Position numbers and translations under genes: made by a program
Source of the DNA: Ariolimax columbianus
Taxonomy: Eukaryota; Mollusca; Gastropoda; Stylommatophora; Arionidae
Assembly: GCA_036924085.1 (NCBI GenBank)
Contig: JAVGWX010000019.1
Location: 6,589,641 to 6,653,640, forward strand
DNA: 64,000 nucleotides
Reading direction: 5' to 3'
Shown here: in pieces, positions 4,953 to 53,946 of the stretch
Layout: every line of letters begins with the position of its first letter
How positions within the stretch are numbered: position 1 is the stretch's first letter
The notes under the pieces: model-generated
The model's input: the letters and a program-made list of their open reading frames with translations, nothing else
The model's database searches: none
Told to the model about the DNA's origin: nothing

Positions 4953-5372
4953 TTAAACTCTAGCTGTTCTGTTTTCGAGATAGGGGTTGATCAATCTGTA
5001 CATTTTTCCAGATACTTCACTTCTTCGTAGCTTGAGTTTCACTCCATCTTGCCACACCTTGTCAAATGCCTTCTCTAAATCCACCCAAACCGCTATTTTG
5101 TGTTTTTTCTCCTGGTAAGTATCCTCTATTTCCTGGGCTATGAGAGTGATCTGGTCCTCAGTGGATCTGTGTTGTCTAAACCCTGCTTGATGTGGAATTA
5201 ATATTCGTTTTTCTTCCAGGTGCGACATCAATCTGGTGTTTATCATACGATCCAACAGTTTACCTACACAGCTCAGTAGACTGATAGGCCTGTATCCATT
5301 TGGATCTGTTTTAGCTTGTGTCATTCTTTGGTACTGGTATAAGTACAGCATCTTTCCATGCCTGTGGTACAA
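4953..5372 (-). pseudogene. RT palm fragment of copy 1
   Basis: 139 codons covering RT motif 1 ([15 protein letters not shown]), motif 2 ([12 protein letters not shown]) and motif A (VWVDLEKAFDKVW), ending before the PQG and FADD motifs, which lie in other frames. The APE-RT linker is at 5732-6115. Confidence 0.85.
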
Positions 5373-5897
5373 TAACTATTTTTTTCAGCATTGGTTCAGG
5401 ATTGATAGTAACTTCCAATTTGCTGTTTGGCCCAACCCCATCAGCATTGCGTTTGTTACTTCATCTTTTCCGGGCGATTTATATTTCTTTAAAGTTATCA
5501 TGGCCTCTTCCATTTCGTTCATTGTTAGTTAGGCCATCATGTGCTCCTCTGGTGCTATGTTGATGTTGTCGTGGCTCTTTTGTTTCTAATTAATGTATGT
5601 GTGCCTGTCTGTAGGGACATCAATGCTTTTTGCTCTGGAATAATGTTCTATAAAGGCGTTTACTGCTTTTTTTTCCGGTTAGCATGTTGTCGCGCTGCTT
5701 GATGGTAATTTCTTTATTTGATGGTGTTTAGTCATTCATGGCTCTGACTAAATTTCCAAAGTTTGTTCCCTTCTTTATCTAGATCGAGTCTTTCTGTTTT
5801 TGTTTTTGTTTTTTCCAGCTGTCTCTTGTTATTTGGTTCAGTGTTCTTTTGTATTTCGCAGTGATGGCCTTGATGCCAAAATTTGCATCCATAGATT

Positions 5898-5932
<35 letters not shown>
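5898..5932 (-). repeat. (GA)n expansion inside the copy 1 linker
   Basis: A CT/GA dinucleotide run on the + strand lies where sister copies encode MAEREKSMEAN. On the minus strand the frame reads MAERERER... for about eight repeats before resuming at QSMDAN. It is a microsatellite grown from a short RER-coding seed. Confidence 0.8.
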
Positions 5933-5933
<1 letters not shown>

Positions 5934-7596
5934 ATGTTCCTAGCATATAAGACTTGGTCCTCCGCTTTCTGCAGTTCATGATTCCAATTTGGCTTATAGT
6001 TTTTCCTTGCGCCTCTTTGGATTGTTTCGGTTGCTGCTTCCAGTATTACTTTTCTTAGGCTTTCCACCATAGGTTTCATATTGTTATTTCGTGTATTCAT
6101 AGTTTCACAGTTCATCTGTCAGCATTACAAATCTGTCCCAAACGGCTCGTCTATAGTTCCAACGTGGTAGCGGTTTTATTTCCAGGGGGCTACTTCCAAA
6201 TCAATTTCTAGCCTAATTGGTATGTGGTCGCTACATGCCAATTGGTTGAGCACCTGACGATTTATTGATTGGTGAATATCCACCGTGGAGAAGGTCAAGT
6301 CTGGAGTGGAGGTGGTGTGTCATGTTCTAGAATAGAAGCTAGGGCTGTCGTCTGACCTATTGATAAAATAGAGATTTGTGTCTATCTCCCAGTTTCCCAC
6401 TTCATCCCCTCTGCTGTCTGTGACTGAATATCCCCATCTCTCCGAGTGACTGTTGAAGTCTACAACCACTATGCATTGATTTCCATACTCGAGAGCGAAA
6501 TGTCTTTGTTTGGTGGGCCATACAGGTTGAATATACGGGTTTTCGTTTCCTGTGTCAATTTGTCGACTCCTACAATGTCCGCCGTTCCGGTGTGATTTAC
6601 ATTTTATGTGCTACGGGTTATGCAGTTCCGTGTCATTATCAGAACGCCTCCTTTGTGACCTTCTCTATCAAGACGGAAGGTCTGGTATCCTCTGATTGAA
6701 CATTTGTGGTTTTTGTTGAGGAACGTTTCTTTGATGCATGCCACATATATCTTACCTTCGTACAGGCGATTTGTCAGGGAAACCTTTTTTGGTACTTACT
6801 CCCTCCGTGTTCCCCTGTAGTATTTTAAGTGTCTTCAGTTTTCGGTCAATAGCTCTGGCCGCATCGCCTTGTGCATTGACTCCACAGCACATAAAGGGGT
6901 GTCTGTCAGTAGCATCAGGCGGGTCCCTTTGAGGCGTGGGGCCCAGCACTCTCGCTGCCTGGCGGGACTCCACAGGATGAGCACCATACTTTCTTCATTT
7001 AAGCTGTGACGTCATCATACAGCGATTTACGTTGCACTGTTTCGTTAAGCCTGTGGCCCAGTGCATCCGATTTCAACATACGTTTCTCTAAGGATGCCCG
7101 CCTTAGCCTTTTGCTGTCCCCAGCCCATCTGCAAGGCAGCAGTTGTTTGAGGTCAGAGTTGTCTCTCTTAGGAAAGTTGTCTTGCAGGACTATCGAGTCT
7201 TCCCCCCGTCTCGAAAGAGTGATGATGATTGTGATATGATTGACTTATATACTAGTTTTTCAAGTGTTTCAAAAGAGAGGCAGTCCAGTGTGTCTGTGTC
7301 CCAGGATCGTCACGTCCTGCCAGAAACGTAGCATATAAATGTGAGTGGGGGTATCTCCTTGCTCCCCTTTAGTATTCCCGGTTCCTTGCATTAATGGTAC
7401 GTCTAGTATTTCCCGCCACCTCGGAGGTTGTTACATATGGACAGATGTGCAATGTCCGCTGGCCTATATCTCTTCTGCGTCCATTGGGATGACTGATATG
7501 AGACGCATATAAATACCGAGGCAAGAGTGCATTGATCCAGGAAAAAGGATGGTCATGGCACGGAGATGTTGTTCTCCTGGAGTGGGAACATATCTA

Positions 7597-8078
7597 ATGA
7601 TCGAGGGGTGAGTCTCAACAGTTCGCAGTCAGGTGGCTGCTCTACTGCTTGTACACCCCGATCGAGAACTAAGTCGTCTACACGTGATTTCCCACCTCCA
7701 CGCCGCATGGGTGAATATCGGACAGCTCCCCGCCCGCTTTGATCGGCGGGACGGCAGAAACCTCTTTCTTCGGCTCGACCAGGTCGGGCTGAGACGCAAG
7801 CCCCCAGGTCCCAACCATATCGGTTCCCCCCGTCGCAGTGATGCTAAGAATATTGTCGCATATCCAGGCGGGATTCTGACTTAGAGGCGTTAAGCCATAA
7901 TCTATCAGATGTCAGCCTCGCAAAATTGGCTCTCAGGCAATCACGTGAACCAAATGTCTGAAACCTGTGATTCCTCTCGGATTGTGCAGGATTACCGTAG
8001 CAACGACCTGTCATCAGTCGGGTAAAACTGACCTGTCTTCCGATGTTTTAATTCCAGCATACGTTCCCTATTAGACCC
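7597..8078 (-). pseudogene. 28S rRNA 3'-end pseudogene inside copy 1
   Basis: The reverse complement follows the 28S 3' end: the region of TAATAGGGAACGT, AGACAGGT-AGTTTTACCC, GGTAATCCTGC, GAGAGGAA-C-CAGGTT, CTCTAAGTCAGAATCCCGCC, and the terminal TAGACGACTT-GTTCTCG-TCGGGGT and GCAGAGCAGC text. It is diverged and cannot be a working rRNA. It joins the LINE 5'UTR at about 7597, the same junction as in copy 2 at about 34543. Confidence 0.85.
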
Positions 8079-8107
8079 AACGAAAAAAAATAGGTATGTC
8101 AATCATT

Positions 8108-8309
8108 GGCGTGTTGAGTTAAATTAAGCCGCAAGCGCAACTCATGGTGGTGCCCTTCCGTCAATTCCTTCAAGTTTATGACTAACGCTTAGTGCGAATT
8201 CATCGTTCATGGGGAAGAGTTGCAAGCCCCAATCCCTAGCACGAAGGAGATTCAACGGGTTTCCAAACCCTTTCAAGGCAGGGAGGCATCCATGCTGATT
8301 CCTTCAGTG
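8108..8309 (-). pseudogene. Scrambled 18S rRNA pieces at the 5' end of copy 1
   Basis: Minus-strand reading begins with an 18S 3'-region piece (CACTGAAGGAATCAGC ... CTAGGGATTGGGGCTTGCAA ... CCCCATGAACGA). At about 8180 it jumps back to the 18S core (GGAATTGACGGAAGGGCACC, GGCTTAATTT-ACTCAACACG). In a real 18S the core precedes the 3' region, so the order is inverted. The switch falls at a short TAA-CTT similarity, as expected for template switching. Within 30 bp of the core piece the 28S piece begins. Confidence 0.85.
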
Positions 8310-8321
8310 ATTGATAGACCC
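8310..8321. repeat. Target-site duplication of chimeric copy 1, right
   Basis: attgatagaccc, the partner of 3354-3365. Family F coding text (TKVWVYQ frame on the minus strand) runs up to it. Confidence 0.75.
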
Positions 8322-20504: not shown

Positions 20505-21440
20505 GAAGATGTCCTGTATTTCGGTTTTGGACATAAAAAGTAGATTGCAAAAGGGATCGGTTTTGGGACCAATTTTATTCTTTATATACATAAGCTACTT
20601 GGACATTGATCGCCACATTCGTTAATGGCACGATACTATACAATAGTGTCTAATCTAAAGCAGAGGTTGAAATATTGAAATCAGATTCAGATACAATTTG
20701 GTAATGATCTGTGAGCTGGCAAATGGAGTTTTTTTGTAGATACATGTACAGTCCGCCTTTTGGGTAGATCTAATATGGTTCATCATTGCATAACAATATT
20801 AGCATGATAGAAAAGTAAAGGGACATAGGGGTAATAATAGATCATACAGGTAAAGTTAGTGAACAAGTCCAGGTAGCATTGGCACAAACAAATGCTAGGT
20901 TAGGTATGATAAACATTAATATTAAACATAGGGGCAAGGAAGTGATTGTCATACTGTATAAAGCAGTTAGACCTAGATTGAAGTACTGTGTACAGGTGTG
21001 GAGTCCTTATCGTTGAGGGGATATAAACATCCTGAAAATGATACAAAGACAAGCGACAGTTGATGGTTGCATTCCAGAATTACAGTTATGAGAAAAGACT
21101 AAAACAATTCGACCTGCTTGGTTTACAACAAGATAAATGTTTAAGGTAACTTACTCCAGGTTTATACGATACGTAAAGGAAATGGTAAATTAGACTATAA
21201 CCGTTTATTTTCACACAAAAAACACCTACAAGAAAAATACAAATTAGCTAAAGTAAGGTCCAGATTAGATATTAGGAAATGTATGTTTAATCAGAGAGTG
21301 ATGAATGCATGAAGTAGTGGAGGAGATGGCAAAAAATGCATTTATGAAAACATTGGAAGCACTTTGCTTTTAGAGCAAGGAAATGTAAATGAAACTCGAT
21401 GTACACGAAGTCTTTATAGTATTCTAAACCAGTATAAAGA
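20505..21440 (+). mobile_element. CR1-like LINE 3' fragment
   Basis: Reads QKGSVLGPILFFIYIS (RT motif B region), WQMEF, RDIGVIIDHTGKVSEQVQVAL, GKEVIVILYKAVRPRLKYCVQVWSPY, MIQRQATV and LDIRKCMFNQRVM. This is the distal RT and C-terminus of a CR1-like LINE and the same family as the split element at 29255-42690. Frameshifted. Confidence 0.75.
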
Positions 21441-29254: not shown

Positions 29255-30075
29255 TTAAACTGGAGGTGTTAAAAGTGGATAAATGCTCAGGTCAAAATTG
29301 TATTCATCCTCAATTTATGTTTAACACCAACTAGCAAAATCGTTTGATATATTTTGTTACCAATCACCTGCAAAAGGAATTGTTCCATGGGATTAGAGAG
29401 ATGCTGGGGTGATCCCATTTTTCGAAATGAAAACAAAATCAGATCCAGCAAATTATCGACCAGTGAGTTTACCGAGCATAGTCTGTAAATTGTTAGTCAA
29501 TAATCAAAGACACCATTGTAAAGGATTTAGACAAGCGGTCTATATTCAGAAATAGTCAGCAAGGGTTTACTAAAGGGAATTCGCGCTTAATAAATATATT
29601 CAAATTCATGGATAAGGTTTCAAAATGATGGAAAGAGGGGAGCCAGTGGATGTTATTTATCTAGATTGTGCAAATGCCTTTGAAAGTGTACCTCATAAAA
29701 TATTATTTCGAATGTTAAAATCACATGGAATAGGAGGGGCAATTGACAAATGGATTTAACATTGGTTAACGAAAAGACAGCAGTAATTTGCTCAAAAAGG
29801 AAGTACTCTGAGTGGTGTGAAGTAAAACGTAGAATGCCACAGTGATCGGTTTTGGGACCAATTTTTTTCTTGATAAATATATAAACGATTTGGACGTTGA
29901 CATGGGATCCATGATTGCAAAATTTGCTGATGACTCAAAACTCTGCAGTAGTGTCTCATCTAAAGCAAAAGTGAATATATTGAGGTCGGAATTATATTTA
30001 ATGTAAGATTGGTCTGTAAGCTGGCAAATGGAGTTTAATGTAGATAAATGTACAGTCATCCATATGGATAGATCC
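29255..30075 (+). mobile_element. CR1-like LINE, segment 1 of 3
   Basis: Reads VLKVDKCSGQNCIHP, NYRPVSLPSIVCKLL (in frame pieces), QQGFTKGNS, VIYLDCANAFESVPHKI (motif A), SVLGPIFFLI and FADDSKLCSS (active site), WQMEFNVDKCTVIHMDRS. It stops at 30075 in mid-frame. The next residues, DRSNMELTYI, are found at 39367, so this is the 5' part of a CR1-like copy interrupted by chimeric copy 2. Confidence 0.85.
30065..30075. repeat. Target-site duplication of chimeric copy 2, left
   Basis: tggatagatcc, identical to 39367-39377. It lies against the (GAA)n tail of the minus-strand LINE. The paralogous CR1 at about 20766 reads gggtagatct with no interruption. Confidence 0.92.
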
Positions 30076-30381
30076 TTCTTTCTTCTTCTTCTTCGTACGT
30101 AGTCAGACAGTAACCATTATTTTTTTTACAAAAAGCGGCGGTCATCCCGAGGTTGTCGACACTGCCATAGAGCTTGTCTTGTGGTTCCACTGGTGATGGC
30201 CACATCTGCTCTCTGTGATCCTCGTATGTCGGGCAGTTCTGCAGCAGATGTTCAGCGGTCATTTTCCCAGTACCACACGGGCATTCGTCGGTACCACATA
30301 TCTTCAATTTGTTGAATAGGTGGTACCTCAGTCTATTGTGGCCAGTGCGAAGTCTGAAGACAACAACCTGCTCTCTTCTGC

Positions 30382-30912
30382 TCAACTGGTAATAGGCATC
30401 GTTTTTGGTGTACCAGTATGTTCGGTTTCCCATTTGGTCATGTATCTGGCTTTGATAAGCCGTTTTGACTCTTCGTTCGTCATACTAGTATCTGTTTGTG
30501 GTAGTCTTGCACCTTCTTTTGCCAGTCTGTCTGCCTCCTCGTTGCCTTTGATGTTGCAGTGTGATGGGACCCACTGTACCACTACCCTATTTGGTGCGGA
30601 CTGCTGGCATAGTTGGCAGAGTACTGCTCTTAAGTCATTAAGCTCAGTGTTTTTCTGGCTTTTTAGCGCTGTGACTACGGCGAGAGCATCTGTCAGCAGG
30701 ACTATATGGCTCTCATTTTCATTGTGTGTCACCATTTCTTCCACTGCCGCCCTCAGTGCCTCTGCCTCCGCTCTGAAATTGCTTGTGTACTTACCAGTAG
30801 CGAATGACAGTGTTATTTTTCTGCCATTTGGTAGGTTCAGGAATGCGCCTGCCCCTCCATTCTGTGTAGTGTTTGTTACAGAACCGTCGGTGTATACATG
30901 GGTCCAGTCCAT
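30382..30912 (-). pseudogene. RNase H domain of copy 2
   Basis: 176 codons with all expected RNH motifs: VYTDGSV, RAEAEALRAAV, VLLTDALAVV and SHCNIKGNEEADRLA. It starts at MDWTH, 60 bp beyond the RT frame end. A frameshift near 30410 (GTPKTM for GYTKND) moves the C-terminal Cys/His motif into the frame at 30056-30433. Confidence 0.9.
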
Positions 30913-30978
30913 GCTTGGGTAGCTTTTCGTTATGAAGCTTAGGGTAGTGTCTCTCCTTTCTTTTTCAGTCTGGCAGTT

Positions 30979-32049
30979 TTAGTTTGCAATACCTGGTATA
31001 TTTTCTACCACCTCTGGAAATATATCCTGCCTCCAGGTAGGTTTTCGTACAGTAGTGATGAGTTTTGGTGTTGTTAGTGCGTTTATGGGATCTTCGTGCA
31101 TCTTTGCTTTGGCTATTTCTGCAAAGTTTCTCCGCTTTAGTTTCCCATTTCCCAAATTGTTTAGTCTCTGGTACATTGGATGGTCCGTCAGTCTTCGGAG
31201 TTTCTCTGACTGCAGCTGGGCTCTGCAGTCTCTTCTATCGGTCATGGATTGCAGTTTTGTAATCGTTTCAAGTTCTACAATTGGCGTTGACTTCATGCCT
31301 TCTGTTATAACTCTCATGGCTTGGTTTTTAAGTTTACTAACTTTATCGAAGTTCGCCTTTGCAGCTGTTGTCCATTCCGCAATGCCATACTCGAGAACTG
31401 GTGTCACTCTTCCAGTGTACAGTTTCTTTAGTATGCTTTCGTCTGCTACCCAGCTTGTGCCAGCAAGTTTCCTCATGATTGCCATTCTTTCTCTGGCTTT
31501 CATTCGGTTTCTCTCAATCTGACTTTTCCATGTCATCAAATGCCGATCAAATGTGACTCCCAGATAGGTTGGGTTGGTGTTTGGCTGCAGGATTTTGCCA
31601 TTTAGACTTAATTTGGTACTTTGGGGTTTTAATGAAAGCGAGAATATTGTGCATGTGGTTTTCTCCTCGTTTATTGTGACCAGCCATGAGTTCGCCCACT
31701 CTTCCAGCGATGTTAGGGCCGTCTGCATCCGATTTCTTGCTATGGTGAGATTCTTTTCAGAGGTCCACATAGCCAGATCGTCTGCAAACATTGAGCTATG
31801 GACTCTTCTTGGTATATTCTCTGTAATATCGTTTATATATACCAGGAAGAGTGTGGGTGACAATACTCCCCCTTGGGGTACTCCCTGCTCGAGTGTCACC
31901 TTTTTGCTCATCTGCCCTTGTACTTGGACTCTGGCCGTTCTTTGTTTGAGGTAGTGGTTGATCCACTTGTACATCTTCCCACAGACATCACTTAGCTTGA
32001 CTCTAAGTCCATCCTTCCAGACTTTGTCAAATGCCTTTTCCAGATCCAC
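30979..32049 (-). pseudogene. RT domain of copy 2
   Basis: 356 codons, the longest open frame in the window. Motif A (DLEKAFDKVW) is at residues 2-11. Motif B (QGVPQGGVLSPTLF), motif C (FADDLAMW, the two catalytic Asp) and YLGVTFDRH follow, then the thumb and a long connection to VENIPGIAN. One codon pair is missing near residue 19 (KLSDV for KLRRSDV). It would copy the RNA at the nicked target. The preceding RT motifs are in the frame at 32170-32409. Confidence 0.9.
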
Positions 32050-32140
32050 CCAAACAGCTACTGTGTGTTGCTGTGCCTGGTAGGCATCTTCTATCTCCTG
32101 GGCTATGAGGATGACCTGGTCCTCAGTGGATCTGTGCTGT

Positions 32141-33010
32141 CTAAAGCCGGCTTGCTGTGGAATTAGTATTCATTTTTCTTCCAGATGCCACATCAGTCTG
32201 GTGTTTATCATACGTTCCATCAGCTTGCCGACACAGCTCAGTAGGCTTATGGGCCTGTATCCATTTGGATCTGTTTTGTCCTTTCCTGTTTTTGGTACTG
32301 GTACCAGTATTGCATCTTTCCATGCCTGTGGTACAATTCCCCTTTTCCAGCTTTGGTTCAGGACCGATAGCAGTTTCCTCTTCGCTGTTTGGCCCAGCCC
32401 CATCTGCATTTCGTTTGTTATCCCGTCTTTTCCGGGAGATTTCCTTTTTCTTTAGTGTTCTCATAGCCTCTTCCATTTCGCGCATTGTTAGTTTGGCCAT
32501 CATGTGCTCTTCAGGAGCCGTATTTATGTTTTCGTGTCCCTTTAGCTCTTCGCTAAAGTCTGTATGCTTATCTGCAGGGACCTCGATGTGGTTTGCTCTG
32601 GCATAGTGATCGACAAAGGCGTTTGCGGCTTTCTTACATGTGATCAAGTTCTCGCCCTGCTTGATAGTAATTTGTTTATTTGACGGGGTTTCGTCGTTCA
32701 TGGCTCTGACTAGCTTCCATAGCTTGTTCCCGTCTTTTTCCAGGTTTAGACTTTCCGTTTTATTTTTCCAGCTTTCTCTTGCTGTTTGCTTGAGAGTGTG
32801 TTTGTACTTCACCGCGGCGGCTTTGAGGGCGATGTTTGCCTCCATGGATTTTTCTCGCTCTGCCATGTTCCTAGCATTTGTTACTGCATCTTCCACTTTC
32901 TGCAACTCATCATTCCAGTAGGGCTTATAGTTTTTCCTAGCTCCTCTTGGGATGGTTTCAGTGGCGGCTTGCATTATTGCCTTGCTTAGGCTCTCTACCA
33001 TGGGCTTCAT
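32141..33010 (-). pseudogene. APE-RT linker of copy 2
   Basis: 289 codons: KPMVESLSKAI, ARKNYKPYWNDEL, SLNLEKDGNKLWKLVRAMND and LTMREMEEAMRTLKKKE. A frameshift then takes the RT start ([20 protein letters not shown]) into the frame at 32170-32409. The block is shared with copies 1 and 3. Confidence 0.8.
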
Positions 33011-34542
33011 TTTGGTGTTTCGTGTGTTGATGGTTTCACACAGCCCATCTGTCAGGATTGCAAATCTGTCCCAGTCGGCTCGTTTGTAATTCCATCGTGG
33101 GAGCGGTTTTTTTTTCCTGTGGGCCTACTTCCATATCAATGTTTAGCCTGATCGGCCTGTGGTCGCTACCTGCCAATTGGTTTAGCACCTGGCGGTCTAT
33201 TTTTGTGTTTGTCCTGTGTGGTAAAGGCCAAATCTGGAGTCGAGGTGGTATGCCATGTTCTTGAATAGAAGCTAGGGCTATTCTCCGGCCTATTGATTAG
33301 GGAGAGATTTGTGTCTATCTCCCAATCTTCCACTTCGTCACCTCTGCTGTCTGTGTCCGAGTATCCCCATCTCTCCGAGTGGCTGTTGAAGTCTCCAACT
33401 ACTATGCAGTTGGAGTCTTTGACTTCCATACTTGAGAGCGATAGGTCTCTATTTGGTGATCCGTACAGATTGAAAATGCGGAGATTCGTCTCTTGGGCCA
33501 TTATGTCAACTCCTACAATTTCTGCTTGTCCGGTGTGATTGACAGATACCGTGCTACTCGGTATGCAGTTTCGGGTCAGTATCAGGACCCCTCATTTGTG
33601 GCCTTCTCTATCGAGACGGAAGGTCTGGTATCCTCTGATTGAGAATTTATGGTTTTTTGTTTAGGTGAGTTTCCTGGATACTTACCACGTCAATCTTACC
33701 TTCATGCCGGTGATGTGTTAGGGCAAGCTTTTTGTTAATGACTCCCTCCGCATTCCACTGTAGTATTTTGAGGGTCTTGAGTTTTTTTGTCAGTAGAACT
33801 TGCCCCATAGCCATGTGCCTTGACTCCACAACACATGGGTGGGTGACCATCAGTAGTCAATGGTGGGCCCCTTCGATGCATGAGGCCCGGCACTCTAGCC
33901 GCCTGGCGGGACTCCGCAGGATGAGCGCCACACGTTTTTTTGATAGGTTGTACTGTCATCATACTGCTATTTACGTTTCACTGCATGTTAAGCCTGTGGC
34001 CCAGTGCATCCGATTTCAACAGGCGTTTCTGTAGGGATGCCCTCCTTAGAATTTGGCTGTCCCCAGCCTATCTGCAAGGCAGCAGTTGTTTGTGATCAGA
34101 GTTGTCTCTCTTATGGAAGTTGTCTTACAGGCCTGACGAGTCTTCACTACTCGTGTCTATAGGATGCGGCAATGATATATTAAATATGATATGTGATATG
34201 GACTATGTACTGGTTTGTACTAACCCGGAAGAGAGGCAGTCCAGTGTGTCCGTATCCCAGTATCGCCACGTCATGACATAAACGTATCATGTGCATTTTG
34301 GCAGGGTACCTCTTTGCTCCCTTTATTTTCTCGGCACATCTTCAGTGATGAAACGCTTAACATTCCTTGCCACCTGGGAGGTTGACACAATAGGGCAGAT
34401 GTGCAATGTCCGCTAGTCTGCATCTCTTCTGCGTCCATTGGTATGGCTGATAGCGTACAGAGGTAGAGATCGAGGCAGAAGTGCATTTAACCAGTCGGCA
34501 AGACTGGTAATGTCACGGAGATGTTGTTCGTCATGGTTATTG

Positions 34543-34985
34543 GTTGAGTCTCGACCGTTCTCAGTGAGGTGGCTGCTCTACTGTTTTCGACACCAAGAAC
34601 TAAGTCTTATGTTGGTGGTTTCGCATCCAATCGCCGTACAGGGTTAATATCAGGCAGCTATCCGCCCACTTTGGTCGGCGGGCGGCAGAGACCTCTTTCT
34701 GCGGCTCTACCGGATAGGGCTGGAGCGCAAGACCCAGGTCCCGACCCTGTCGTAGCCTCCCATTGCATTGGTGCTGAGATTTTGGGCGGGATTCCGGCTT
34801 GCATGCGTTCGGCCGTAATCCCTCACATGGTAGCCTCGCGCCATTGGCTTATCAGCCTGGTACGTGAACCACAGTGTCTGCGGCCCCTCTCGAATTTGAG
34901 CAGGATTACCGAAGCAAAGCCCTGCCATTAGTAGGGTAAAACTTACCTGTCTTCAGATGGTCTATTTCCAGCACCCGTTCACTAT
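34543..34985 (-). pseudogene. 28S rRNA 3'-end pseudogene inside copy 2
   Basis: The reverse complement carries GACAGGTAAGTTTTACCCTAC, GGTAATCCTGCTCAAAT-CGAGAGGGGCCGCAG, the GAAT-CCCGCCC block and the terminal GTAGAGCAGCCACCTCACTG text. It joins the LINE 5'UTR at the same point as copy 1, with similar sequence on both sides of the join. Diverged and partial, so non-functional. Confidence 0.85.
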
Positions 34986-35107
34986 TAGACCAGACGAATT
35001 AATTGTGGACTTTTGTTTGTCAATGACCATGTATCTGAAATCTGCGATTAATCTGAAATCTGGGGTTAAACACGATTTTTGTAGCGTTCTTTTATTTAAG
35101 GTTAATG
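34986..35107. other. Unassigned insert between 28S pieces of copy 2
   Basis: About 120 bp with no rRNA match I can see, including a short duplication (atctgaaatctgcg and atctgaaatctggg). Absent from copy 1. Confidence 0.4.
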
Positions 35108-35398
35108 AGCTGATTTGTCTTCCGTGAGTCTAATACCAGCACTCGTTCATTATTAGACCCAACGGAAGTGCTCTCGATTTTTCAGTCGTTCTACAGAATT
35201 GGCGTGTTGAGTCAAATTAAGCCGCAGGTTCCACTCCTGGTGGTGCCCTTCCGTCAATTATTTTAGCGAACATTAGATACGAGACAATCAAGCTACCGAG
35301 AGGAAAGCCCCAGATTTTCGAGGGTCTAATTCCAGCATCCGTTCTATATTAGACCTAACGAAAGTGCTCTCGGAATGTTAATCATTTCAGTGTTTGGC
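35108..35398 (-). pseudogene. Two tandem 18S-core/28S fusion units in copy 2
   Basis: On the + strand each unit has a 28S piece (tctaat-ccagcactcgttc, ttagaccyaacg) followed by a short linker with agtgctctcg and then an 18S core piece (gcgtgttgagtcaaattaag, gccgcaggttccactcctgg, gtgcccttccgtcaatt). Unit 1 covers about 35108-35262 and unit 2 about 35310 onward, where the 18S core runs on into 35398-35563. Copy 1 has the same fusion once (8050-8190). Confidence 0.8.
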
Positions 35399-35438
35399 CG
35401 TGTTGAGTAAAAATAAGCAGCAGGCTCCACTCCTGTTT

Positions 35439-35470
<32 letters not shown>

Positions 35471-35563
35471 TTTGCAACCATACTTCCCCCGGAACCCAAA
35501 CACTTTGGCTTCCCGGAAACTGCCCGCAGAGGCATCGAAGCAACTCCTGCGGATCGCTTGTCG
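35399..35563 (-). pseudogene. 18S rRNA pseudogene, segment 2 (core)
   Basis: The reverse complement reads CGATCCGC-GGAGTTGCTTCGATGCCTCTGCGGGCAG-TTCCGGGAAGCC, TTTGGGTTCCGGGGGAAGT, GGTTGCAAAGCTGAAACTTA and GGAATTGACGG. It directly continues the 18S segment at 37666-38744 once nested copy 4 is removed. Confidence 0.9.
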
Positions 35564-36388
35564 GCAAATGGATACAGACCCATCAGCCTACTGAGATGGG
35601 TCGGCAAGCTCATGGAATGTATTATAAACACCAGGCTGATGTGGCATCTGGAAGAAAAACGAATACTAGTTCCACAGCAAGCCGGCTTTAGACAGCACAG
35701 ATCCACTGAGGACCAGGTCATCCTCATAGCCCAGGAAACAGAAGATGCCTACCATGCACAGAAACACACAGTAGCTGTTTGGGTGGATCTGGAAAAGGCA
35801 TTTGGCAAAGTCTGGAAAGATGGACTTAGAGTCAAGCTAAGAAGAAGTGATGTTTGTGGGAAAATGTACAAGTGGATCAACCACTACCTCAAAAACAGAA
35901 CGGCCAGAGTCCAAGTACAAGGGCAGATGAGCAAAAAGGTGACATTCGAGCAGGGAGTACCCCAAGGGGGAGTACTGTCACCCACACTCTTCCTGGTGTA
36001 TATTAAAGACATTACAGAGAATATACAAAGAAGAGTCCATAGCTCAATGTTTGCAGATGATCTGGCTATGTGGACCTCTGAAAATAATCTGACCATACCA
36101 AGAAATCTGATGCAGCAGGCCATAACATTGCTGGACGAGTGGGCGAACTCATGGCTGGTCAAAATAAACGAGGAGAAAACCACATGCACAATATTCTCGC
36201 TTTCAATCAAAACCCAAAATACCAAATTAAGTCTAAAGGGCAAATTCCTGCAGCCAAACGACAACCCAAACTATCTGGGAGTCACATTTGATCGGCGCAT
36301 CACATGGAAAAGTCAGATTGAGAGAAACCGAATGAGAGCCAGAGAAAGAATGGAAATCATGAGGAAACTTGCTGGCAAAGCTGGATAG
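35558..36388 (+). pseudogene. RT domain of copy 4
   Basis: 276 codons with [34 protein letters not shown] (the second Asp of motif A changed to Gly), QGVPQGGVLSPTLF, FADDLAMW and YLGVTFDRR. It stops at KLAGKAG where sister copies read KLAGTSW. The first two codons come from 18S. Confidence 0.85.
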
Positions 36389-37665
36389 CAGACGAAAGCA
36401 TACTAAAGAGACTGTACACTGGAAGAGTGAGACCAGTTCTCGAGTACGACATTGCGGCATGGACAACAGCAGCAAAGGCGAACTTCGATAAAGTTAGCAA
36501 ACTTTAAAACCAAGCTATGAGAGGAGGCATGAAGTCAACGCCAATTGTAGAACTTGAAAAGATTACAAAACGGCAATCCATGGCCGATAGAAGAGACTGC
36601 AGAGCCCAGCTGCAGTCAGAGAAACTCCGAAGACTGACTGACCATCCAATGCAGTAGAAACTAAACAATTTGGGAAATGGGAAACTAAAGCGGAGAAACT
36701 TTGCAGAAATAGCCAAAGCAAAGATGCACGAAGATCCTATACACGCACTAACAACACCAAAACCCATCACGACTGTACGAAAACCTACCTGGAGGCAGGA
36801 TATATTTCCAGAGGTGGTAGAAAATCGACCAGGTATTGGAAATAAAAACTGCCAGACTGTAAAAGAAAAGAGAGATACTACCCTTAGCTTTATATCGAAA
36901 AGCTACCCAAGCATGGACTGGACCGATGCATACACCGACGGTTCTATAACAAACACTACACAGAACGGAGGGGCAGGAGCATTCCTGAACCTACCAAATG
37001 GCAGAAAAATAACACTCTCATTCGCTACTGGTAAGTACACAAGCAATTTCAGAGCGGAGGCAGAGGCACTGAGGGCGGCAGTGGAAGAAATGGTGACACA
37101 TAAGAAAATGAAAGCCATATAGCCCTGCTTACAGATGCTCTCGCCGTAGTCACAGCGCTAAAAAGCCAAACAAACACTGAGCTTAAGGACTTAAGAGCAG
37201 CACTCTGTCAACTGTGCCAGCAGTCCGCACCAAAAAAGGTAGTGGTACAGTGGGTCCCATCACACTGCAACATTAAACGCAACGAGGAGGCAGACAGACT
37301 GGCAAAAGAACGTGCAAGACTACCACAAACAGATACTAGTATGACGTACGAAGAGTCAAAACGGCTTATCAAAGCCAGATACATGACCAAATGGGAAAGC
37401 GAACATACTGGTTACACCAAAAACGATGCCTATTACCAGTTGACCACAATAGACTGATGTACCACCTATTCAACAAATTAAAGATATGTGGTACTGACGA
37501 ATGCCCGTGCGGTACCGGTAAAATGACAGCTGAAGATCTGCTGCAGAACTGCCCGACATACGAGGATCAGAGAGAGCAGATGTGGCCATCACCATTGGAA
37601 CTGCAAGACAAGCTTACTGTCTGACTGAGTACGAAGAAGAAGAAGAAGAAGAAGAAGAAGAAGAA
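35564..37665 (+). mobile_element. Element N copy 4, nested in the 18S part of copy 2
   Basis: A 5'-truncated LINE on the strand opposite to its host. It starts in the RT motif NGYRPISLL, runs through FADDLAMW, the thumb, RNH and Cys/His, and ends in a long (GAA)n tail at 37632-37665. It is flanked by gcttgtcg (35556-35563) and gctagtcg (37666-37673), an 8-bp duplication with one change, and splits a continuous 18S sequence. A deletion removes part of the C-terminal code just before the tail. Confidence 0.9.
36670..37122 (+). pseudogene. RT connection and RNH N-terminus of copy 4
   Basis: 150 codons from NGKLKRRNFAEIAKAKM through MDWTDAYTDGSITNTTQN and RAEAEALRAAV. A frameshift at MVTHKKMKAI removes the rest of RNH to the frame at 37242-37457, which holds CNIKRNEEADRLA (Gly changed to Arg in the His/Asp block). 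Confidence 0.8.
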
Positions 37666-38744
37666 GCTAGTCGACATCGTTTATGGTCAGAAATACGACG
37701 GTATCTGATCGTCTTCGTGCCTCTGACTTTCGTTATTGATTAATGAAAACATTCTTGAAAAATGCTATCGCAGTAGCTCGTCTTGCGGAGATCAAAGAAT
37801 TTAACCTCTAACGCTGCAATATTGATGCCTCCGTTTGTCCCTGTTAATCATTACCTCCAGTTCCGAAAACCAACAAAATAGAACCGAGGTCCTATTCCAT
37901 TTCTCCATGCACCATTATTCAGGCAGCCGAGGCCTGCTTTGAACACTCTAATTTTTTCAAAGTAAACGCGCCGGCCACCCAGGACGCTCAGCGAAGAGCA
38001 CCCGTGGGAGAGAGCCGACAGACGGTAGGGCAGAAGACAACAGGCAGTTAACCGGAGCGAGCCGGATCGCCTGCCTGCGCCTGAGATCCAACTACGAGCT
38101 TTTTAACTGCATCAACTTTAATATACAATATTGCAGCTGGAATTATCGCGGCTGCTGGCACCAGACTTTATCTCCAATAGATCATCGTTAAAGGGTTTAA
38201 AAGGCACTCATTTCAATTACGGGGACTCGAAAGAGTCCCGCATTGTTATTTTTCGTCACTACCTCCCCGTGCCGGGAGTGGGTAAGTTGCGCGCCTGCTG
38301 CCTTCCTTGGATGTGGTTGCCGTTTCTCATGCTCCGTCTCCTGAATCGAACACTGATTCCCCGTTACCTGTTACAAACATGGTAGGCATGTCACGTACCA
38401 TCGACATTTGATAGGGCAGACATTTGAAAGATGCTCGCCGGCACATGAGGCCATGCGATCAGCACAAAGTTATCCAGAGTCACCAGTCGGGACGCCGCAA
38501 CCCCGCGAGGAGAAACGACGATTGGTTTTGAACTAATAAAAGCGCTCTTTCCGTGAGGGTCGGAGCTTGGTAAGCATGTATTAGCTCTAGAATTGCCACA
38601 GTTATCCAAGTAGGATCGTGTCATCTAAGGAACCTCGACTGATTTAATGAGCCATTCGTGGTTTCACCGTGAGACAGTGTGAACTTAGACATGCAGGGCT
38701 TAATCTTTGAGACAAGCATATGACTACTGGCAGGATCAACCAGA
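37666..38744 (-). pseudogene. 18S rRNA pseudogene, segment 1 (5' part)
   Basis: Read on the minus strand it begins near the 18S start (GGTTGATCCTGCCAGTAGTC) and continues collinearly through CATGTCTAAGTTCACACTGT, GCTAATACATGC, CGCGCAACTTACCCACTCCC, GTGCCAGCAGCCGCG, AAAAAGCTCGTAGTTGGATC, TTTGAAAAAATTAGAGTG and ACGATGTCGACTAG, about 1.08 kb. It is much better preserved than the 28S part, with scattered changes (CCGCGATAATTCCAG). It lacks the rest of the gene and is interrupted by a LINE, so it is a pseudogene. Confidence 0.92.
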
Positions 38745-39366
38745 TATCTGTCGGACACGTACGTACTGCACACACCGGTCGGCGGAGGACGGGTGTGTAA
38801 AAAGCCTCACTGGGACGGCCGCAGGGACCGACTGACGGAACCGACGGACGGTTGTTCCACCCGTCCCTCACTCCGTCGACCGCCTGACAGAGGCCCCTAC
38901 ACACACCAGACGACCGACCGACCGGGATCGCTCGAGGACGGATGGCAGCGCTCTGTGCCAAACGGATCCCAACGACCCCGGCGATTCACTGGGACTAGAT
39001 CCAATTTGGCCTGCTGGCCTGCCCTTCTCCCGAGGGTTGGTCCCCGGGAGAACACAGGGCCTTCAGGCACGATTCCTGCATTCCATTTGTCGGTCACAGG
39101 CTCTTTGCGAGAGTCTGACCACCAGCCAGCTCTGCTATAAGCCTTCGAAAAATCACCACTGACTGTGTAAGTTTCTTGTTACGGACCAGAGCAGTGCACC
39201 TCATTGGAAGCAACGACAAAAAAAAACCGCTTCCCGATACGTCATCGGGGAAAGGCGGGCAAGCGTTTTCCGCAAGCCCGCGCTATCGCTCCGCCTGGCG
39301 GGACTGAGATCGCTTTAGGAACACTGATTGTGATTGAATCGCGTCGGCGAGACAACTACCCCAGAT
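38745..39366 (-). other. GC-rich 5'ETS-like sequence upstream of 18S
   Basis: About 620 bp immediately 5' of the 18S start on the minus strand, rich in GC blocks such as tcggtcggtcgtctgg. Position and composition fit the 5' external transcribed spacer of pre-rRNA, but such spacers diverge too fast for recognition by sequence. It ends exactly at the target-site duplication, so it would mark the 5' end of the copied RNA or a truncation point. Confidence 0.6.
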
Positions 39367-39836
39367 TGGATAGATCCAATATGGAACTTACATACATAAT
39401 TGGCGAGAACAATATTAGAAAAATAGAAAAGGAAAAAGTCGTAGGTGTTATATTAGATCATTCAGGTAAGGTGAGTGAGATAGTCTAGATAGCAATGAAA
39501 AAGCCAAATGCAGTTGTATGGGTGATAAATAGAAATATTAAACTTAAGAGCAAGGAATCTATAGTCAATCTGCATGAAGCTTAAGTTCGACATAGATTGG
39601 AGTATTGTGTACAGGTGTGGAGTCCTTTTCATAGAGGGGATATAAACATGCTGGAAATAATGCAAAAAAAGAGCGACATGGATGATATTGGGATTCCAGA
39701 ATTACAGTTAAAGGGAAAGAGAAAAAACGGACTACAGTGTCTATAAAAGTGAATAATTCGAGGTGAGGCAAAACATAACCACATGAACAAGAGCGCATTG
39801 CTAATAATTGACTAAAGTGACGTCCAGATTAGATCA
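39367..39836 (+). mobile_element. CR1-like LINE, segment 2 of 3
   Basis: Begins with the second copy of tggatagatcc and reads DRSNMELTYIIGENN, EKEKVVGVILDHSGKVSEI, KSKESIVNLHEA, LEYCVQVWSPFHRGDINML. It continues segment 1 in the same frame. It breaks at gtccagattagat (39824-39836), where a minus-strand RTE tail (catcatcat) starts. Confidence 0.85.
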
Positions 39837-45018: not shown

Positions 45019-45819
45019 TCACTGCGGAGTAAACATACTCATTGTGAACATTCTTCTTCTTCTTCTTCTTTCTTCTTCTTCTTCGTACGCAGTCAGACAG
45101 TAAACAATATTTTTTTCGAAAAAAGCGGTGGTCATCCTGAGGCTGTCGATACTGCCATAGAGCTGGTCTTGTGGTGGCCACATCTGCTCTCTCTGATCCT
45201 CGTATGTCCGGCAGTTCTGCAGCAGATGTTCAGCGGTCATTTTCCCGGTACCACACGGGCATTCGTCGGTACCACCTATCTTCAATTTGTTGAATAGGTG
45301 GTACCTCAGTCTATTGTGGCCAGTACGAAGTCTGAAGACAACGACCTGCTCTCTTCTGTTCAACTGGTAATAGGCATCGTTTTTGGTGTAACCAGTATGT
45401 TCGGTTTCCCATTTGGTCATGTATCTGGCTTTAATAAGCCGTTTTGACTCTTCGTACGTCATACTAGTATCTGTTTGTGGTAGTCTTGCACCTTCTTTTG
45501 CCAGTCTGTCTGCCTCCTCGTTGCCTTGGATGTTGCAGTGTGATGGGACCCACTCTACCACTACCATTTTTGGTGCGGACTGCTGGCATAGTTGACAGAG
45601 TACTGCTCTTAAGTCATTAAGCTCAGTGTTTTTCTGGCTTTTTAGCGCTGTGACTATGGCCATAGCATCTGTAAGCAGGACTGTATGGCTTTCATTTTCT
45701 TTATGTGTCACCATTTCTTCCACTGCCGCCCTCAGTGCCTCTGCCTCCGCTCTGAATTTGCTTGTGTTCTTACCTGTAACGAATGACAGTGTTATTGTTC
45801 TGCCATTTGGTAGGTTCAA
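45019..45819 (-). pseudogene. RNase H and C-terminal Cys/His domain of copy 3
   Basis: 266 codons, the most complete C-terminus in the window: RAEAEALRAAV, VLLTDAMAIV, HCNIQGNEEADRLA, the middle EQVVVFRLRTGHNRLRYHL, then CPCGTGKMTAEHLLQNC. It starts just after the first RNH Asp, which lies in another frame. It ends YCLTAYEEEEE and runs through the tail (frameshifting to Arg codons) into flanking DNA, stopping at 45019. Confidence 0.88.
45044..45053. repeat. Target-site duplication of copy 3, left
   Basis: gtgaacattc, repeated at 49102-49111. The right arm of the inverted duplication shows the empty form near 55103-55112 (gaatgcccac on +). Confidence 0.85.
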
Positions 45820-46645
45820 GAATGCTCCTGCTCCTCCGTTCTGTGTAGTGTGTGTTACAGAGCCGTCGGTGTATGCATGGGTCCAGTAAAATGCTTGGAT
45901 AGTTTTTCGATATAAAACTTAGGATATTATCTCTCCTTTCTTTTTCAGTCTGAAAGTTTTTGTTTCCAATACCTGGTATATTTTCTACCACCTCTGGAAA
46001 TATATCCTGCCTCCAGAAAGGTTTTCGTACAGTAGTGATGGACTTTGGTGTTGTTAGTGCGTTTATGGGATCTTCGTGCATCTTTGCTTTGGCTATTTCT
46101 GCAACGTTTCTCCGCTTTAGTTTCCCATTTCCGAAATTGTTTAGTCTCTGGTGCATTGGATGGTCAGTCAGTCTTCGGAAATTCTCTGACTGCAGCTGGG
46201 CTCTGTAGTCTCTTATACGGTCATGGATTGCAGTTTTGTAATCTTTTCAAGTTCTACAATTGGCGTTGACTTCCTGCCACCTGATATAACTCGCATGGCT
46301 TGGTTTTTAAGTTTACTAACTTTATCGAAATTCGCCTTTGCTTCTGTTGTCCATGCCGCAATGCCATACTCGAGAACTGGTCTCACTCTTCCAGTGTACA
46401 GTTTCTTTAGTATGCTTTCGTCTGCTCCCAGCTTGTGCCAGCAAGTTTCCTCATGATTTCCATTCTTTCTCTGGCTCTCATTCGGTTTCTCTCTAACTGA
46501 CTTTTCCATGTCATGCGCCGATCAAATGTGACTCCCAGATAGTTTGGGTTGTCGTTTGGCTGCAGGAATTTGCCATTTGAACCTAATTTGGTGTTTTAGG
46601 GTTTGATTGAGAGCTAGAATATTGCACATGTGGTTTTCTCCTCGT

Positions 46646-47200
46646 TTATTTTGACCAGCCAATAGTTCGCTCACTCTTCAGCGATGTTAGGGCCTGCTGC
46701 ATCCGATTTCTTGCTATGGTGAGATTCTTTTCAGAGGTCAACATAGCCAGATCGTCTGCAAACATTGAGCTATGGACTCTTCTTGGTATATTCTCTGTAA
46801 TGTCGTTTATACACACTAGGAAGAGTGTCGGTGACAGTATTCCCCTTTGGGTTACTCCCTGCTCGAGTGTCACCTTTTTGCTCATCTGCCCTTGTACTTG
46901 GACTTTGGCCTTTCTTTTTTGGAGGTAGTGATTGATCCACTTGTACATTCTCCAACACATTTCACTTCTCCTTAGCTTGACTCTAAGTCCATCTTTCCAG
47001 ACTTTGACAAATGCCTTTTCCAGGTCCACCAAAACGCCTACTGTGTGTTTCTGCGCCTGGTAGGCATCTTCTATTTCCTGGTCTATGAGGATGACCTGGT
47101 CCTCAGTGGATCTGTGCTGTCTAAAGCCTGCTTGCTGTATAATTAGTATTAGTTTTTCTTCCAGATGCCACATCAGTCTGGTGTTTATCATACGTTCCAT
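46646..47200 (-). pseudogene. RT palm of copy 3
   Basis: 184 codons: [23 protein letters not shown] (AFD changed to AFV), QGVTQRGILSPTLF (PQG changed to TQR) and FADDLAML. Two conserved RT motifs are damaged although the FADD Asp pair remains. A frameshift after SLKSE ends it. Confidence 0.85.
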
Positions 47201-47337
47201 CAGTTTGCCGACACAACTCAGTAGACTGATAGGCCTTTTTCCATTTGGATCTGTTTTGTCCTTTCCTTTCTTTGGTACTGGTACCAGTACTGCGTTTTTC
47301 CATGCCTAGGGTACAATACCCCTTTTCCAGCTTTGGT

Positions 47338-47679
47338 TCAGGACTGATAGCAGTTTCCTTTTGGCTGTTTTGCCCAGCCCATCAGCATTTCGTTTGTTAT
47401 CCCGTCTTTTCCGGGAGATTTCCTTTTCTGTAATGTTCTCATGGCCTCTTTCATTTCGCTCATTGTTAATTTGGCCATCATATGCTCTTCTGGTGCCGTA
47501 TTGATGTTGACGTGCCCCTTTTGCTCTTCACTAATGTATGTATGCCTATATGCAGGGACCTCGATGTTGTTTGCTCTGGCATAGTGTTCTACAAAAGCGT
47601 TTGCGTCTTTTTTTCCAGTGAGCAGGTTTTCGCCCTGCTTGATGGTAATTTGTTTGTTTGACGGGGTTTCGTCGTTCAT
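47338..47679 (-). pseudogene. APE-RT linker of copy 3
   Basis: 113 codons: MNDETPSNKQITIKQGENLL, FVEHYARANNIEVPA, LTMSEMKEAMRTLQKRKSPG and KDGITNEMLMG. The last part is the LK-KSPGKDGI motif that leads into RT. Confidence 0.8.
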
Positions 47680-47919
47680 GGCTCTGACTAGCTTCCATAG
47701 CTTGTTCCCGTCTTTGTCCAGGATTAGGCTTTCCGTTTTGTTTTTCCAGCTTTCTCTTGCTGTTTGCTTGAGAGTGTATTTTTATTTCGACGTGGCGGCT
47801 TTGAGGGCGATGTTTGCCTCCATAGATTGTTCACGCTCTGCCATGTTCCTAGCATTTGTTACTGCAGCTTCCGCTTTCTGCAACTCATTATTCCAGTAGG
47901 GCTTATAGTTTTTCCTAGC

Positions 47920-48987
47920 TCATCTTGGGATGGTTTCAGTGGTGGCTTGCATTATTGCCTTGCTTAGGCTTTCTACCATGGGCTTCATTTTGTTGTTTCG
48001 TGTGTTGATGGTTTCACACAGCCCATCTGTCAGGATTGCAAATCTGTCCCAGTCGGCTCGTTTGTAATTCCAACGTGGGAGCGGTTTTGTTTCCTGTGGG
48101 CCTACTTCCATATCAATGTCTAGCCTGATCGGCATGTGGTCGCTACCTGCCAGTTGGTTTAGCACCTGGCGGTCTATTTTATGGTGTATGTCCTGTGTGG
48201 AGAAGGCAAAATCTGGATTCGAGGTGGTATGCCATGTTCTAGAATAGAAACTAGGGCTATCCTCCGGCCTATTGATTAGGGAGAGATTTGTATCTATCTC
48301 CCAATCTTCCACTTCGTCACCTCTTCTGTCTGTGTCCGAGTCTCCCCATCTCTCCGAGTGGCTGTTGAAGTCCCCAACTACTATGCAGTTGGAGTCTTTG
48401 ACTTCCATACTCGAGAGCAATAGGTATTTTTTTGGTGGTCCGTACAGATTGAAAATGCGGAGCTTCGTCTTTTGAGCCATTATGTCAACTCCTACAATTT
48501 CTGCTTGTCCGGTGTGATTGACAGATACCGCGCTACTCGGTATGCAGTTTCGGGTCAGTATCAGGACCCCTCCTTTGTGACCTTCTCTTTCGAGACGGAA
48601 GGTCTGGTATCCTCTGATTGAGAATTGATGATTATTGTTGAGGTGCGTTTCTTGGATACATGCCACGTCAATCTTACCTTCATGCAGGTGATGTGTTAGA
48701 TAAAGCTTTTTGTTAATGATTCCCTCCGCATACCACTGTAGTATTTTGAGGGTCTTGAGTTTTTGGTCAATATAAATTACCCCATAGCCATGTGCCTTGA
48801 CTCCACAACACATGGGTTGGTGACCACCAGTAGTCAAGGGTGGGCCCCTTCGAGGCGTGAGGCCCGGCACTCTCGCTGCCTGGCGGGACTCTGTAGGATG
48901 AGCGCCATACGTTTTGCTGATCGGTTGTACTGTCATCATACTGCGATTTACGTTGCACTGTTTCGTTAGGCTTGTGGCCCCGTGCAT
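47920..48987 (-). pseudogene. APE endonuclease domain of copy 3
   Basis: 355 codons. APE motifs: ILQWYAEG at residues 82-89 (the usual Asn is Tyr), QETHL at 112-116, GDFNSH at 205-210, TWHTTSNPD at 251-259 and SDHMP at 282-286. The Glu, the GDFN Asp/Asn and the terminal SDH are present, so most catalytic positions survive. The 80 residues before the domain include PMCCGVKAHG, shared by all copies. It would nick the target DNA for priming. The frame breaks at TIPR, before the RT linker. Confidence 0.88.
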
Positions 48988-49111
48988 CCGATTTCAACAG
49001 GCGTTTCTGTAGGGATGCCCTCCTTAGCCTTTGGCTGTCCCCAGGCTTTCTGCAAGTTGTTTTGGATTAGAGTTTTCTCTCTTATGGAAGTTGTCTTACC
49101 AGTGAACATTC

Positions 49112-53838: not shown

Positions 53839-53946
<108 letters not shown>

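What the first reader, a model, noticed from the sequence alone, without database searches (positions are those of the whole stretch)
30065..39377. A 9.3-kb insertion in which 5'ETS-like DNA, 18S, 28S and a LINE moved as one unit
Seen: an 11-bp perfect duplication (tggatagatcc) lies at 30065-30075, against the LINE (GAA)n tail, and at 39367-39377, against the ETS-like end. The CR1 frame stops at HMDRS on one side and resumes at DRSNMEL on the other. All rRNA and the LINE lie between, in the same orientation. Known: LINE insertion makes such duplications, and the RNA 5' end lies at the far side from the tail. Inference: one RNA carrying pre-rRNA 5' sequence, part of 18S, the 28S 3' end and the LINE was reverse transcribed. 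That implies rDNA-driven, possibly Pol I, expression of the LINE, or an element that has taken rRNA as its 5' region.
Basis: partly seen in the sequence, partly recalled or inferred. Interest (0 to 1): 0.95.

Follow-up and report, generated by a model that had tools for sequence, protein, structure and literature searches.

The report
LINE wearing a ribosomal RNA head
This is one copy of a LINE jumping element, found at many places in the genome of what is probably a snail-like mollusc, whose front end is made of ribosomal RNA sequence and likely includes the start of the rRNA precursor, so it is likely expressed from ribosomal DNA, which would give a protein-coding parasite one of the cell's strongest promoters.

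Summary
Window 30076-39366 is one insertion in a CR1 copy, bounded by an 11-bp duplication; CR1 relatives show the empty site. It is not unique. In the window's own 2.29-Gb genome, 41 long matches (own copy included) from 40 scored candidates span the 28S-end/LINE junction. The ETS-like plus 18S start matches at 40 of 40 scored candidates; 38 reach the unit's exact 5' end. Twenty of 20 such copies read begin at the same base with unrelated flanks, and the exact 22-base terminus occurs 3,173 times. So this is a LINE family with an rRNA-derived 5' region: ETS-like DNA, 18S to ~1208, an rRNA mosaic, the 28S end. In nine copies the 28S/LINE part shows subfamilies and the 18S part does not, although private mutations are equally dense: the 18S is renewed from host rRNA, most likely because source copies sit in rDNA and are transcribed by Pol I. 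The rival is a template switch onto pre-rRNA at each insertion. Pol I transcription, rDNA location and identity of the ETS are untested.

The parts
39367..39377 (-). 5' target-site duplication TGGATAGATCC
   Evidence: exact, only two in the window
38747..39366 (-). 5' ETS-like segment; 39366 is the shared 5' terminus (ATCTGGGGTAGTTG...)
   Evidence: 40 of 40 scored genome matches, 38 reach 39366; 20 of 20 other copies read start at the same base; 3,173 exact 22-mers. Called ETS because it adjoins 18S position 1; identity with the host's true ETS not tested
37666..38746 (-). 18S rRNA, positions 1 to about 1050
   Evidence: RF01960, 745 bits (Rfam's match runs to 37615, into copy D)
35566..37665 (+). 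nested 5'-truncated LINE copy D, antisense in the 18S, with (GAA)n tail
   Evidence: 91% to 32267-30171; absent from 11 of 11 fetched copies whose 18S crosses this place
35556..35565 (+). left copy of D's probable duplication GCTTGTCGGC (right copy 37666-37675 GCTAGTCGAC, 8 of 10)
35398..35555 (-). 18S continued to about position 1208
34999..35397 (-). leader mosaic: degenerate tandem repeats of 18S ~1145-1208 with 28S ~2935-2975 pieces (28S positions estimated by counting back from Rfam 3007)
   Evidence: repeat pairs 35316-35461/35120-35265; alignment
34530..34998 (-). 28S 3' end, about 2940 to 3399
   Evidence: RF02543 at 34784-34910; the rest by alignment to copy B, where Rfam reaches 3399; shared with B, L023, L026
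34035..34529 (-). LINE 5' UTR proper
   Evidence: shared with B, L023, L026 and, from 34494, with L016 and L027
30095..34034 (-). LINE coding region, decayed: endonuclease, reverse transcriptase, RNase H
   Evidence: PF14529/PF03372 (in copy C), PF00078 and PF00075 (in this copy)
30076..30094 (-). (GAA)n 3' tail
30065..30075 (-). 3' target-site duplication TGGATAGATCC
3366..8314 (-). copy B: older family member (about 77% to A) with 28S 3' end and 18S pieces; 7-bp duplication GGGTCTA at 3359-3365 / 8315-8321
45057..49099 (-). copy C: same LINE, truncated in the 5' UTR; 7-10 bp duplication
   Evidence: 91.7% to 30075-34128
20534..21104 (+). CR1 paralogue with the empty site

Best explanation
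This is a single retrotransposed copy of a dispersed LINE family that carries ETS-like, 18S and 28S sequence as its 5' region with one fixed 5' terminus, and its RNA is likely a Pol I transcript made from source copies that would sit in ribosomal DNA. Shown here: the insertion boundaries, the family, the fixed terminus in every copy read (21 of 21), the shared junctions, and an 18S part that lacks the subfamily structure of the rest. Inferred: the ETS-like DNA is the host's 5' ETS and its first base the pre-rRNA start site; source units (rDNA start, 18S to ~1208, mosaic leader, 28S end, LINE) lie in the rDNA array, where concerted evolution keeps their 18S/ETS canonical while leader and LINE diverge into subfamilies; the RNA is primed at its GAA tail at unspecific sites and reverse-transcribed to its 5' end; new copies lack the upstream promoter and decay. 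Copies that start in ITS1 and carry 5.8S would be cDNAs that switched to a processed pre-rRNA.
For: Fixed terminus. Junction shared on 17 contigs. Two of the 3 junctions on the listed part of C1 have an exact terminus 2.1-2.2 kb upstream on the same strand, unit A's own spacing without D. Of 5 terminus sites taken from the first 7's list and read 1.83-1.98 kb downstream, 5 are in a leader of a second subfamily and 4 show its join to canonical 18S (L069's stretch starts inside the leader). In 9 copies (of 15 loci; the others lack part of the stretch): shared variant sites 5/698 in 18S against 27/662 in 28S+5'UTR (p=4e-5); a subfamily split at 0/853 against 16/1055 columns (p=1.2e-4, split defined after seeing the data); singletons 100/698 against 101/662 (p=0.65). 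L026: 18S 95.4 and 99.3% to the majority of 8 copies, leader 86.5%, 28S 87.9%, 5'UTR 90.0%, endonuclease region 93.6%. A recalled 28S core outside the element matches only 10 times against 3,173 termini, so this is not general rDNA scatter.
Against: No rDNA-resident source copy and no rDNA array was seen; the 10 places of the 28S core are dispersed. The host's own ETS and 18S were never seen, so 'host-like' rests on Rfam and recall. A homology-guided switch onto pre-rRNA at each insertion explains the homogeneous 18S equally well, and L065 (ITS1-5.8S-ITS2-28S start-18S-18S-leader) suggests that such switches happen. Only 3 of 15 A-type 18S-leader joins on the listed part of C1 have an exact terminus upstream; decay and truncation may explain this. 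No clear codon-position bias was seen in the RT region, so no selection on the LINE protein among these copies. L022 holds the LINE start with non-rRNA upstream.
Confidence: 0.55

Rival explanations
1. Fresh capture at every insertion: the LINE RNA itself starts near the leader (about window 35400), whose 18S-derived tip lets the cDNA pair with host pre-rRNA; reverse transcription then runs to the 5' end of the pre-rRNA (ETS start) or of a processed intermediate (ITS1).
For: 18S without subfamily signal. L064 joins ITS2 to the leader at 35401 and L065 has a different set of joins, yet both start at the same ITS1 bases GGGGTACCTGAGCGTCC. L023 and L035 end at about 35412 and 35405-35409.
Against: Would need a switch in nearly every full-length copy; the same 18S join recurs at 585 exact places and in a second leader subfamily (4 of 5 read). 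The pattern counts that would show a pile-up of 5' ends at the join were asked for and never answered.
Confidence: 0.3
2. Plain inheritance: rRNA was captured once, and the whole ETS-18S-28S-LINE element has since moved as an ordinary LINE with its own internal promoter, independent of rDNA.
For: Shared junctions and fixed 5' end.
Against: 18S lacks the subfamily split of the rest and is less diverged than leader and 28S, unless it is under strong selection.
Confidence: 0.12
3. Independent one-off chimeras by template switching, as in primate rRNA/LINE-1 chimeras.
For: Such chimeras are known (PMC13174262, passages).
Against: Same junctions and same start in copies on many contigs.
Confidence: 0.02
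4. Assembly error, or a duplicated piece of an rDNA array.
For: The rDNA array itself seems not to be assembled.
Against: Target duplication plus empty sites; 21 of 21 5' ends read have unrelated flanks.
Confidence: 0.01

Closest known systems
R2 and other R elements of rDNA
   Same: LINE without own promoter, co-transcribed with rRNA (R2: PMC3542110, abstract and passages); the likeness in transcription is inferred
   Different: R2 RNA is processed away from the 28S co-transcript by a 5' ribozyme and R2 inserts at a fixed 28S site; here rRNA stays on the copies, which lie at unrelated sites, and no ribozyme family was matched
28S rRNA/LINE-1 chimeras of primates
   Same: rRNA 5' of a LINE, mostly in sense, in one insertion (PMC13174262, passages)
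   Different: 18 loci with 50-482 nt of 28S; here a multi-copy family with ETS-like DNA and 18S and a fixed 5' end
rRNA-headed SINEs (5S-derived HaSE3; 28S-derived)
   Same: rRNA-derived 5' head on a mobile element (PMC3272025, passages; 28S case named in PMC13174262)
   Different: short and non-coding, with a Pol III promoter in the 5S case; here a protein-coding LINE
R2 families with 28S-like 3' UTR
   Same: rRNA sequence built into a LINE (PMC5035012, passages)
   Different: at the 3' end, perhaps tied to target choice
R7/R8 elements in 18S rDNA (recalled, no call)
   Same: LINEs associated with 18S rDNA
   Different: site-specific; here no 18S target site was shown

Membership tests
LINE (non-LTR retrotransposon) with APE-type endonuclease and RNase H | endonuclease, reverse transcriptase and RNase H domains | tested here: met
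   PF14529/PF03372, PF00078, PF00075
LINE (non-LTR retrotransposon) with APE-type endonuclease and RNase H | marks of target-primed reverse transcription: target duplication, simple 3' tail, 5' truncation | tested here: met
   duplications of 11, 7 and 7-10 bp in copies A, B, C and (GAA)n tails, variable 5' ends; no clean duplication for L023 and L026
LINE (non-LTR retrotransposon) with APE-type endonuclease and RNase H | clade placement (I, Ingi, Nimb or other) by RT tree | not tested
   the named proteins among the nearest 120 are gastropod; no tree built
R element of rDNA | insertion at one fixed rDNA site | tested here: not met
   21 of 21 copies read have unrelated 5' flanks
R element of rDNA | source copies in rDNA, Pol I co-transcription | not testable with these tools
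   no rDNA array found in the assembly, no RNA data
R2 | 5' HDV-like ribozyme | tested here: not met
   no ribozyme family at E up to 10 in 33900-34700 nor at gathering score in the window
one-off rRNA/LINE chimera | each locus has its own junction | tested here: not met
   41 long matches span the same junction
SINE with rRNA head | non-coding, lacks reverse transcriptase | tested here: not met
   LINE coding region in the same insertion

The most novel reading that the evidence does not exclude
A LINE family whose protein-coding RNA is a Pol I transcript: it lives in ribosomal DNA downstream of the 18S start, keeps pre-rRNA as its 5' leader, and exports thousands of full-length copies to unspecific sites across the genome, each copy recording the host pre-rRNA start and sequence of its day.
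Probability: 0.5. Interest if true: 0.92.

Novelty: new variant of a known kind. Interest (0 to 1): 0.87.

Why it matters
LINEs are known (recalled) with Pol II-type internal promoters or, for R elements, as residents of rDNA that trim the rRNA off. A dispersed LINE that keeps the pre-rRNA start as its front end would show that a coding retrotransposon can run on rRNA transcription and still colonise the whole genome. It raises directly testable questions: how an uncapped RNA would be translated, whether reverse transcription happens in the nucleolus, and what the leader's rRNA repeats do. It would also leave many dated fossils of the host's own ETS and 18S, and many false 18S copies that could disturb barcoding and rDNA assembly.

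Tried and rejected
Rejected: one-off chimera, assembly join, segmental duplication (different flanks, different 5' truncations) and, less firmly, plain inheritance (see rivals). Tried without result: the 28S family RF02543 over the genome gave no usable answer; a junction pattern in viral contigs found nothing; Rfam at E up to 10 over the LINE 5' UTR found no ribozyme; codon-position bias in the RT region showed none clearly; clean target duplications for L023 and L026 were not found. Literature: among the titles and abstract starts listed by seven answered searches (one search listed 12 of 25) I saw no LINE family with a pre-rRNA 5' region; they cover open-licence PMC papers only. Read as passages: PMC13174262, PMC5035012, PMC3272025, PMC3542110, PMC13188248; other papers were seen in listings only.

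Rows left out before counts: for the 5'-end reading 20 of the 39 other matches were taken from the top, skipping C7:76140523, whose match stops at 709 of 727. For one search, 9 of 15 loci (L029 being unit A) were used; L031, L033, L034, L035, L039 and L040 lack part of the stretch. For one search, 5 of the first 7 places were read; C1:138915 was passed over because it already pairs with a junction, and C1:4904253 for want of letters.
Full report
Observation. The window holds TGGATAGATCC exactly twice, at 30065-30075 and 39367-39377. The flanks are a CR1 element, and an uninterrupted CR1 at 20534-21104 aligns with both flanks, overlapping by exactly the duplication. Rfam finds 18S at 37615-38746 and a piece of the 28S 3' end at 34784-34910 on the minus strand; weaker 18S signal continues to about 35400. 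The LINE, with endonuclease, reverse transcriptase and RNase H domains in its copies, lies downstream on the same strand, with a (GAA)n tail against the duplication. A second copy of the same LINE (35566-37665) sits antisense inside the 18S with its own tail and a probable 10-bp duplication. In 11 of 11 fetched copies whose 18S crosses this place it is uninterrupted (L026; ten loci), so this is a later, private insertion.

Not a single event. Copy B in the same window (3366-8314, 77% identical, its own 7-bp duplication) has the same 28S-LINE junction. The window's genome is held (2,294,143,704 bases, 401 contigs). Twenty of the 39 other LINE hits were fetched with 10 kb each. Two carry rRNA at Rfam's threshold (L023, L026); in the other 18 the copy that brought the locus in is truncated within the LINE or its 5' UTR. 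Other copies in the same loci add: L016, a shorter 28S piece with another junction to the LINE; L027, a remnant of that junction; L022, the LINE start with unrelated DNA upstream. A search with the junction region gave 53 matches from 40 scored candidates (4,866 in the first look); 41 of the 53, the window's own included, are long and span the junction, on 17 contigs, at 81-100% identity; the other 12 are short pieces of the leader repeats. The scored candidates are the best ones, so this is a lower bound and no rate.

Fixed 5' terminus. A search with the ETS-like segment and the 18S start gave 40 matches from 40 scored candidates (3,447 in the first look; own copy included), 38 of them reaching the unit's last base. 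The 5' ends of 20 of the 39 others were read: with unit A, 21 of 21 have A at the position of window 39366 followed by TCTGGGG (19) or a one-base variant (2). Mean pairwise identity is 0.27 over 100 bases upstream and 0.955 over 29 bases downstream. The exact 22-base start occurs 3,173 times, 1,561 on plus and 1,612 on minus, against 0 for the reversed control; the 100 places listed are spread over the first 76 Mb of C1.

Do the starts belong to LINEs? Unit A shows the whole run. Two of the 3 junctions on the listed part of C1 (C1:141056, C1:45370715) have an exact start (C1:138915, C1:45373745) 2.1-2.2 kb upstream on the same strand, unit A's spacing without the nested copy; the third (L041) has none. 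Of 5 starts read 1.83-1.98 kb downstream, 5 are in a leader that is 89-93% like L065's and 76-84% like A's, and 4 show its join to 18S at ...CAACACGG; the fifth stretch (L069) begins inside the leader. Of 15 A-type 18S-leader joins on the listed part of C1, 3 have an exact start 1.5-1.9 kb upstream. That most of the 3,173 starts continue into a LINE is therefore likely but inferred. A recalled 28S core sequence outside the element occurs only 10 times, dispersed, so the starts are not abundant because of whole rDNA units; no rDNA array was found in the assembly.

Where the rRNA comes from. In nine copies with both parts, the 28S+5'UTR region (662 columns) has 128 variable sites, 27 shared by two or more copies, with a clean split of L041, L042 and L043. 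The 18S region (698 columns) has 105 variable sites, 5 shared and none for that split. Over the longer alignment the split appears at 0 of 853 columns in 18S and 16 of 1,055 downstream (p=1.2e-4; the split was defined from the downstream data). Shared sites as such differ at p=4e-5. Private changes are equally dense (100/698 and 101/662, p=0.65). The equal load suggests that both parts entered together in each copy; the missing split suggests that the 18S part does not share the long history of the rest. L026, from an older subfamily, agrees: 18S 95.4 and 99.3% to the majority of eight copies, leader 86.5%, 28S 87.9%, 5'UTR 90.0%; its endonuclease region, 93.6%, is nearly as close as the 18S. 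At conserved Rfam positions the family's 18S differs at 7 of 283 sites, most of them, by recall, ordinary molluscan variants. The host's own 18S was not seen.

Further captures. 5.8S is dispersed too: 40 of 40 scored candidates are over the cut-off (53,434 in the first look; the control search rings in 9 of 14 well-known genomes, over the cut-off in 5). Two of the 40 lie just upstream of a junction, and a third (C1:106064912) lies upstream of 18S-leader joins. Reading the first two: L064 is ITS1-5.8S-ITS2 joined to the leader at window 35401; L065 is ITS1-5.8S-ITS2-28S start-18S piece-18S piece-leader (28S start recognised by recall). Both start at the same ITS1 bases although their joins differ. 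This looks like reverse transcription that switched to a processed pre-rRNA and ran off its 5' end.

Mechanism. A likely chain: source units in rDNA carry ETS, 18S to ~1208, leader, 28S end and LINE; Pol I transcribes them from the rRNA start; the RNA is inserted by target-primed reverse transcription at unspecific sites; copies lack the promoter and decay. This explains the fixed start, the same 18S-leader join in two leader subfamilies, and the renewed 18S (by concerted evolution in the array). The main rival is a switch to pre-rRNA at each insertion, guided by the leader's 18S tip. Both hold that host rRNA is renewed in the element; they differ in whether the 18S-leader join exists as DNA in rDNA. 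The test by pattern counts did not complete by the machine.

Known relatives. R2 lacks a promoter and is processed from a 28S co-transcript (PMC3542110, passages). Primate 28S/LINE-1 chimeras are 18 loci with 50-482 nt of 28S (PMC13174262, passages). 5S-headed SINEs are short and non-coding (PMC3272025, passages). [quoted passage not shown] None of these is a dispersed, coding LINE with a pre-rRNA 5' end. Host: the named proteins among the 120 listed LINE relatives are gastropod (Elysia, Bradybaena, Candidula, Nucella, Littorina, Pomacea), so the host is probably a gastropod; it was not identified.

Noticed in passing
window 10468-11037: Tandem array with a period of 94 bases, copies about 98.5% alike; not identified.
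   Followed up: no
window 3366-8314: Copy B carries 18S ~1500-1648 upstream of 18S ~1145, an order not found in rRNA, joined at a short shared sequence: an independent template switch.
   Followed up: partly
L022:2905-3500 and L027:5472-6300: LINE 5' UTRs whose upstream sequence is not rRNA (L022) or only a remnant of an alternative 28S junction (L027), so the LINE has changed its 5' end more than once.
   Followed up: partly
G000 C6:45356329-45357910: Two junction regions head to tail on the same strand: a tandem leader.
   Followed up: no
G000 C1:27730268 and C1:27732195: Two exact element starts 1.9 kb apart on the same strand: possibly a double run through pre-rRNA.
   Followed up: no
window 35322-35357: The leader's 28S-derived piece forms a perfect 8-bp inverted repeat (GGTCTAAT...ATTAGACC) not expected from the 28S (canonical sequence recalled); function unknown.
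   Followed up: no
L044, L050, L051, L063: Share a variant (ATATCATCCAG) about 30 bases from the 5' terminus: ETS variants occur among copies; whether they follow rDNA variants or LINE subfamilies is open.
   Followed up: no
window 53832-53948 and 1984-2049: Low-complexity self-complementary repeats.
   Followed up: no
window 8304-8588: Minus-strand frame that reads like part of another reverse transcriptase, next to copy B; no Pfam match.
   Followed up: partly
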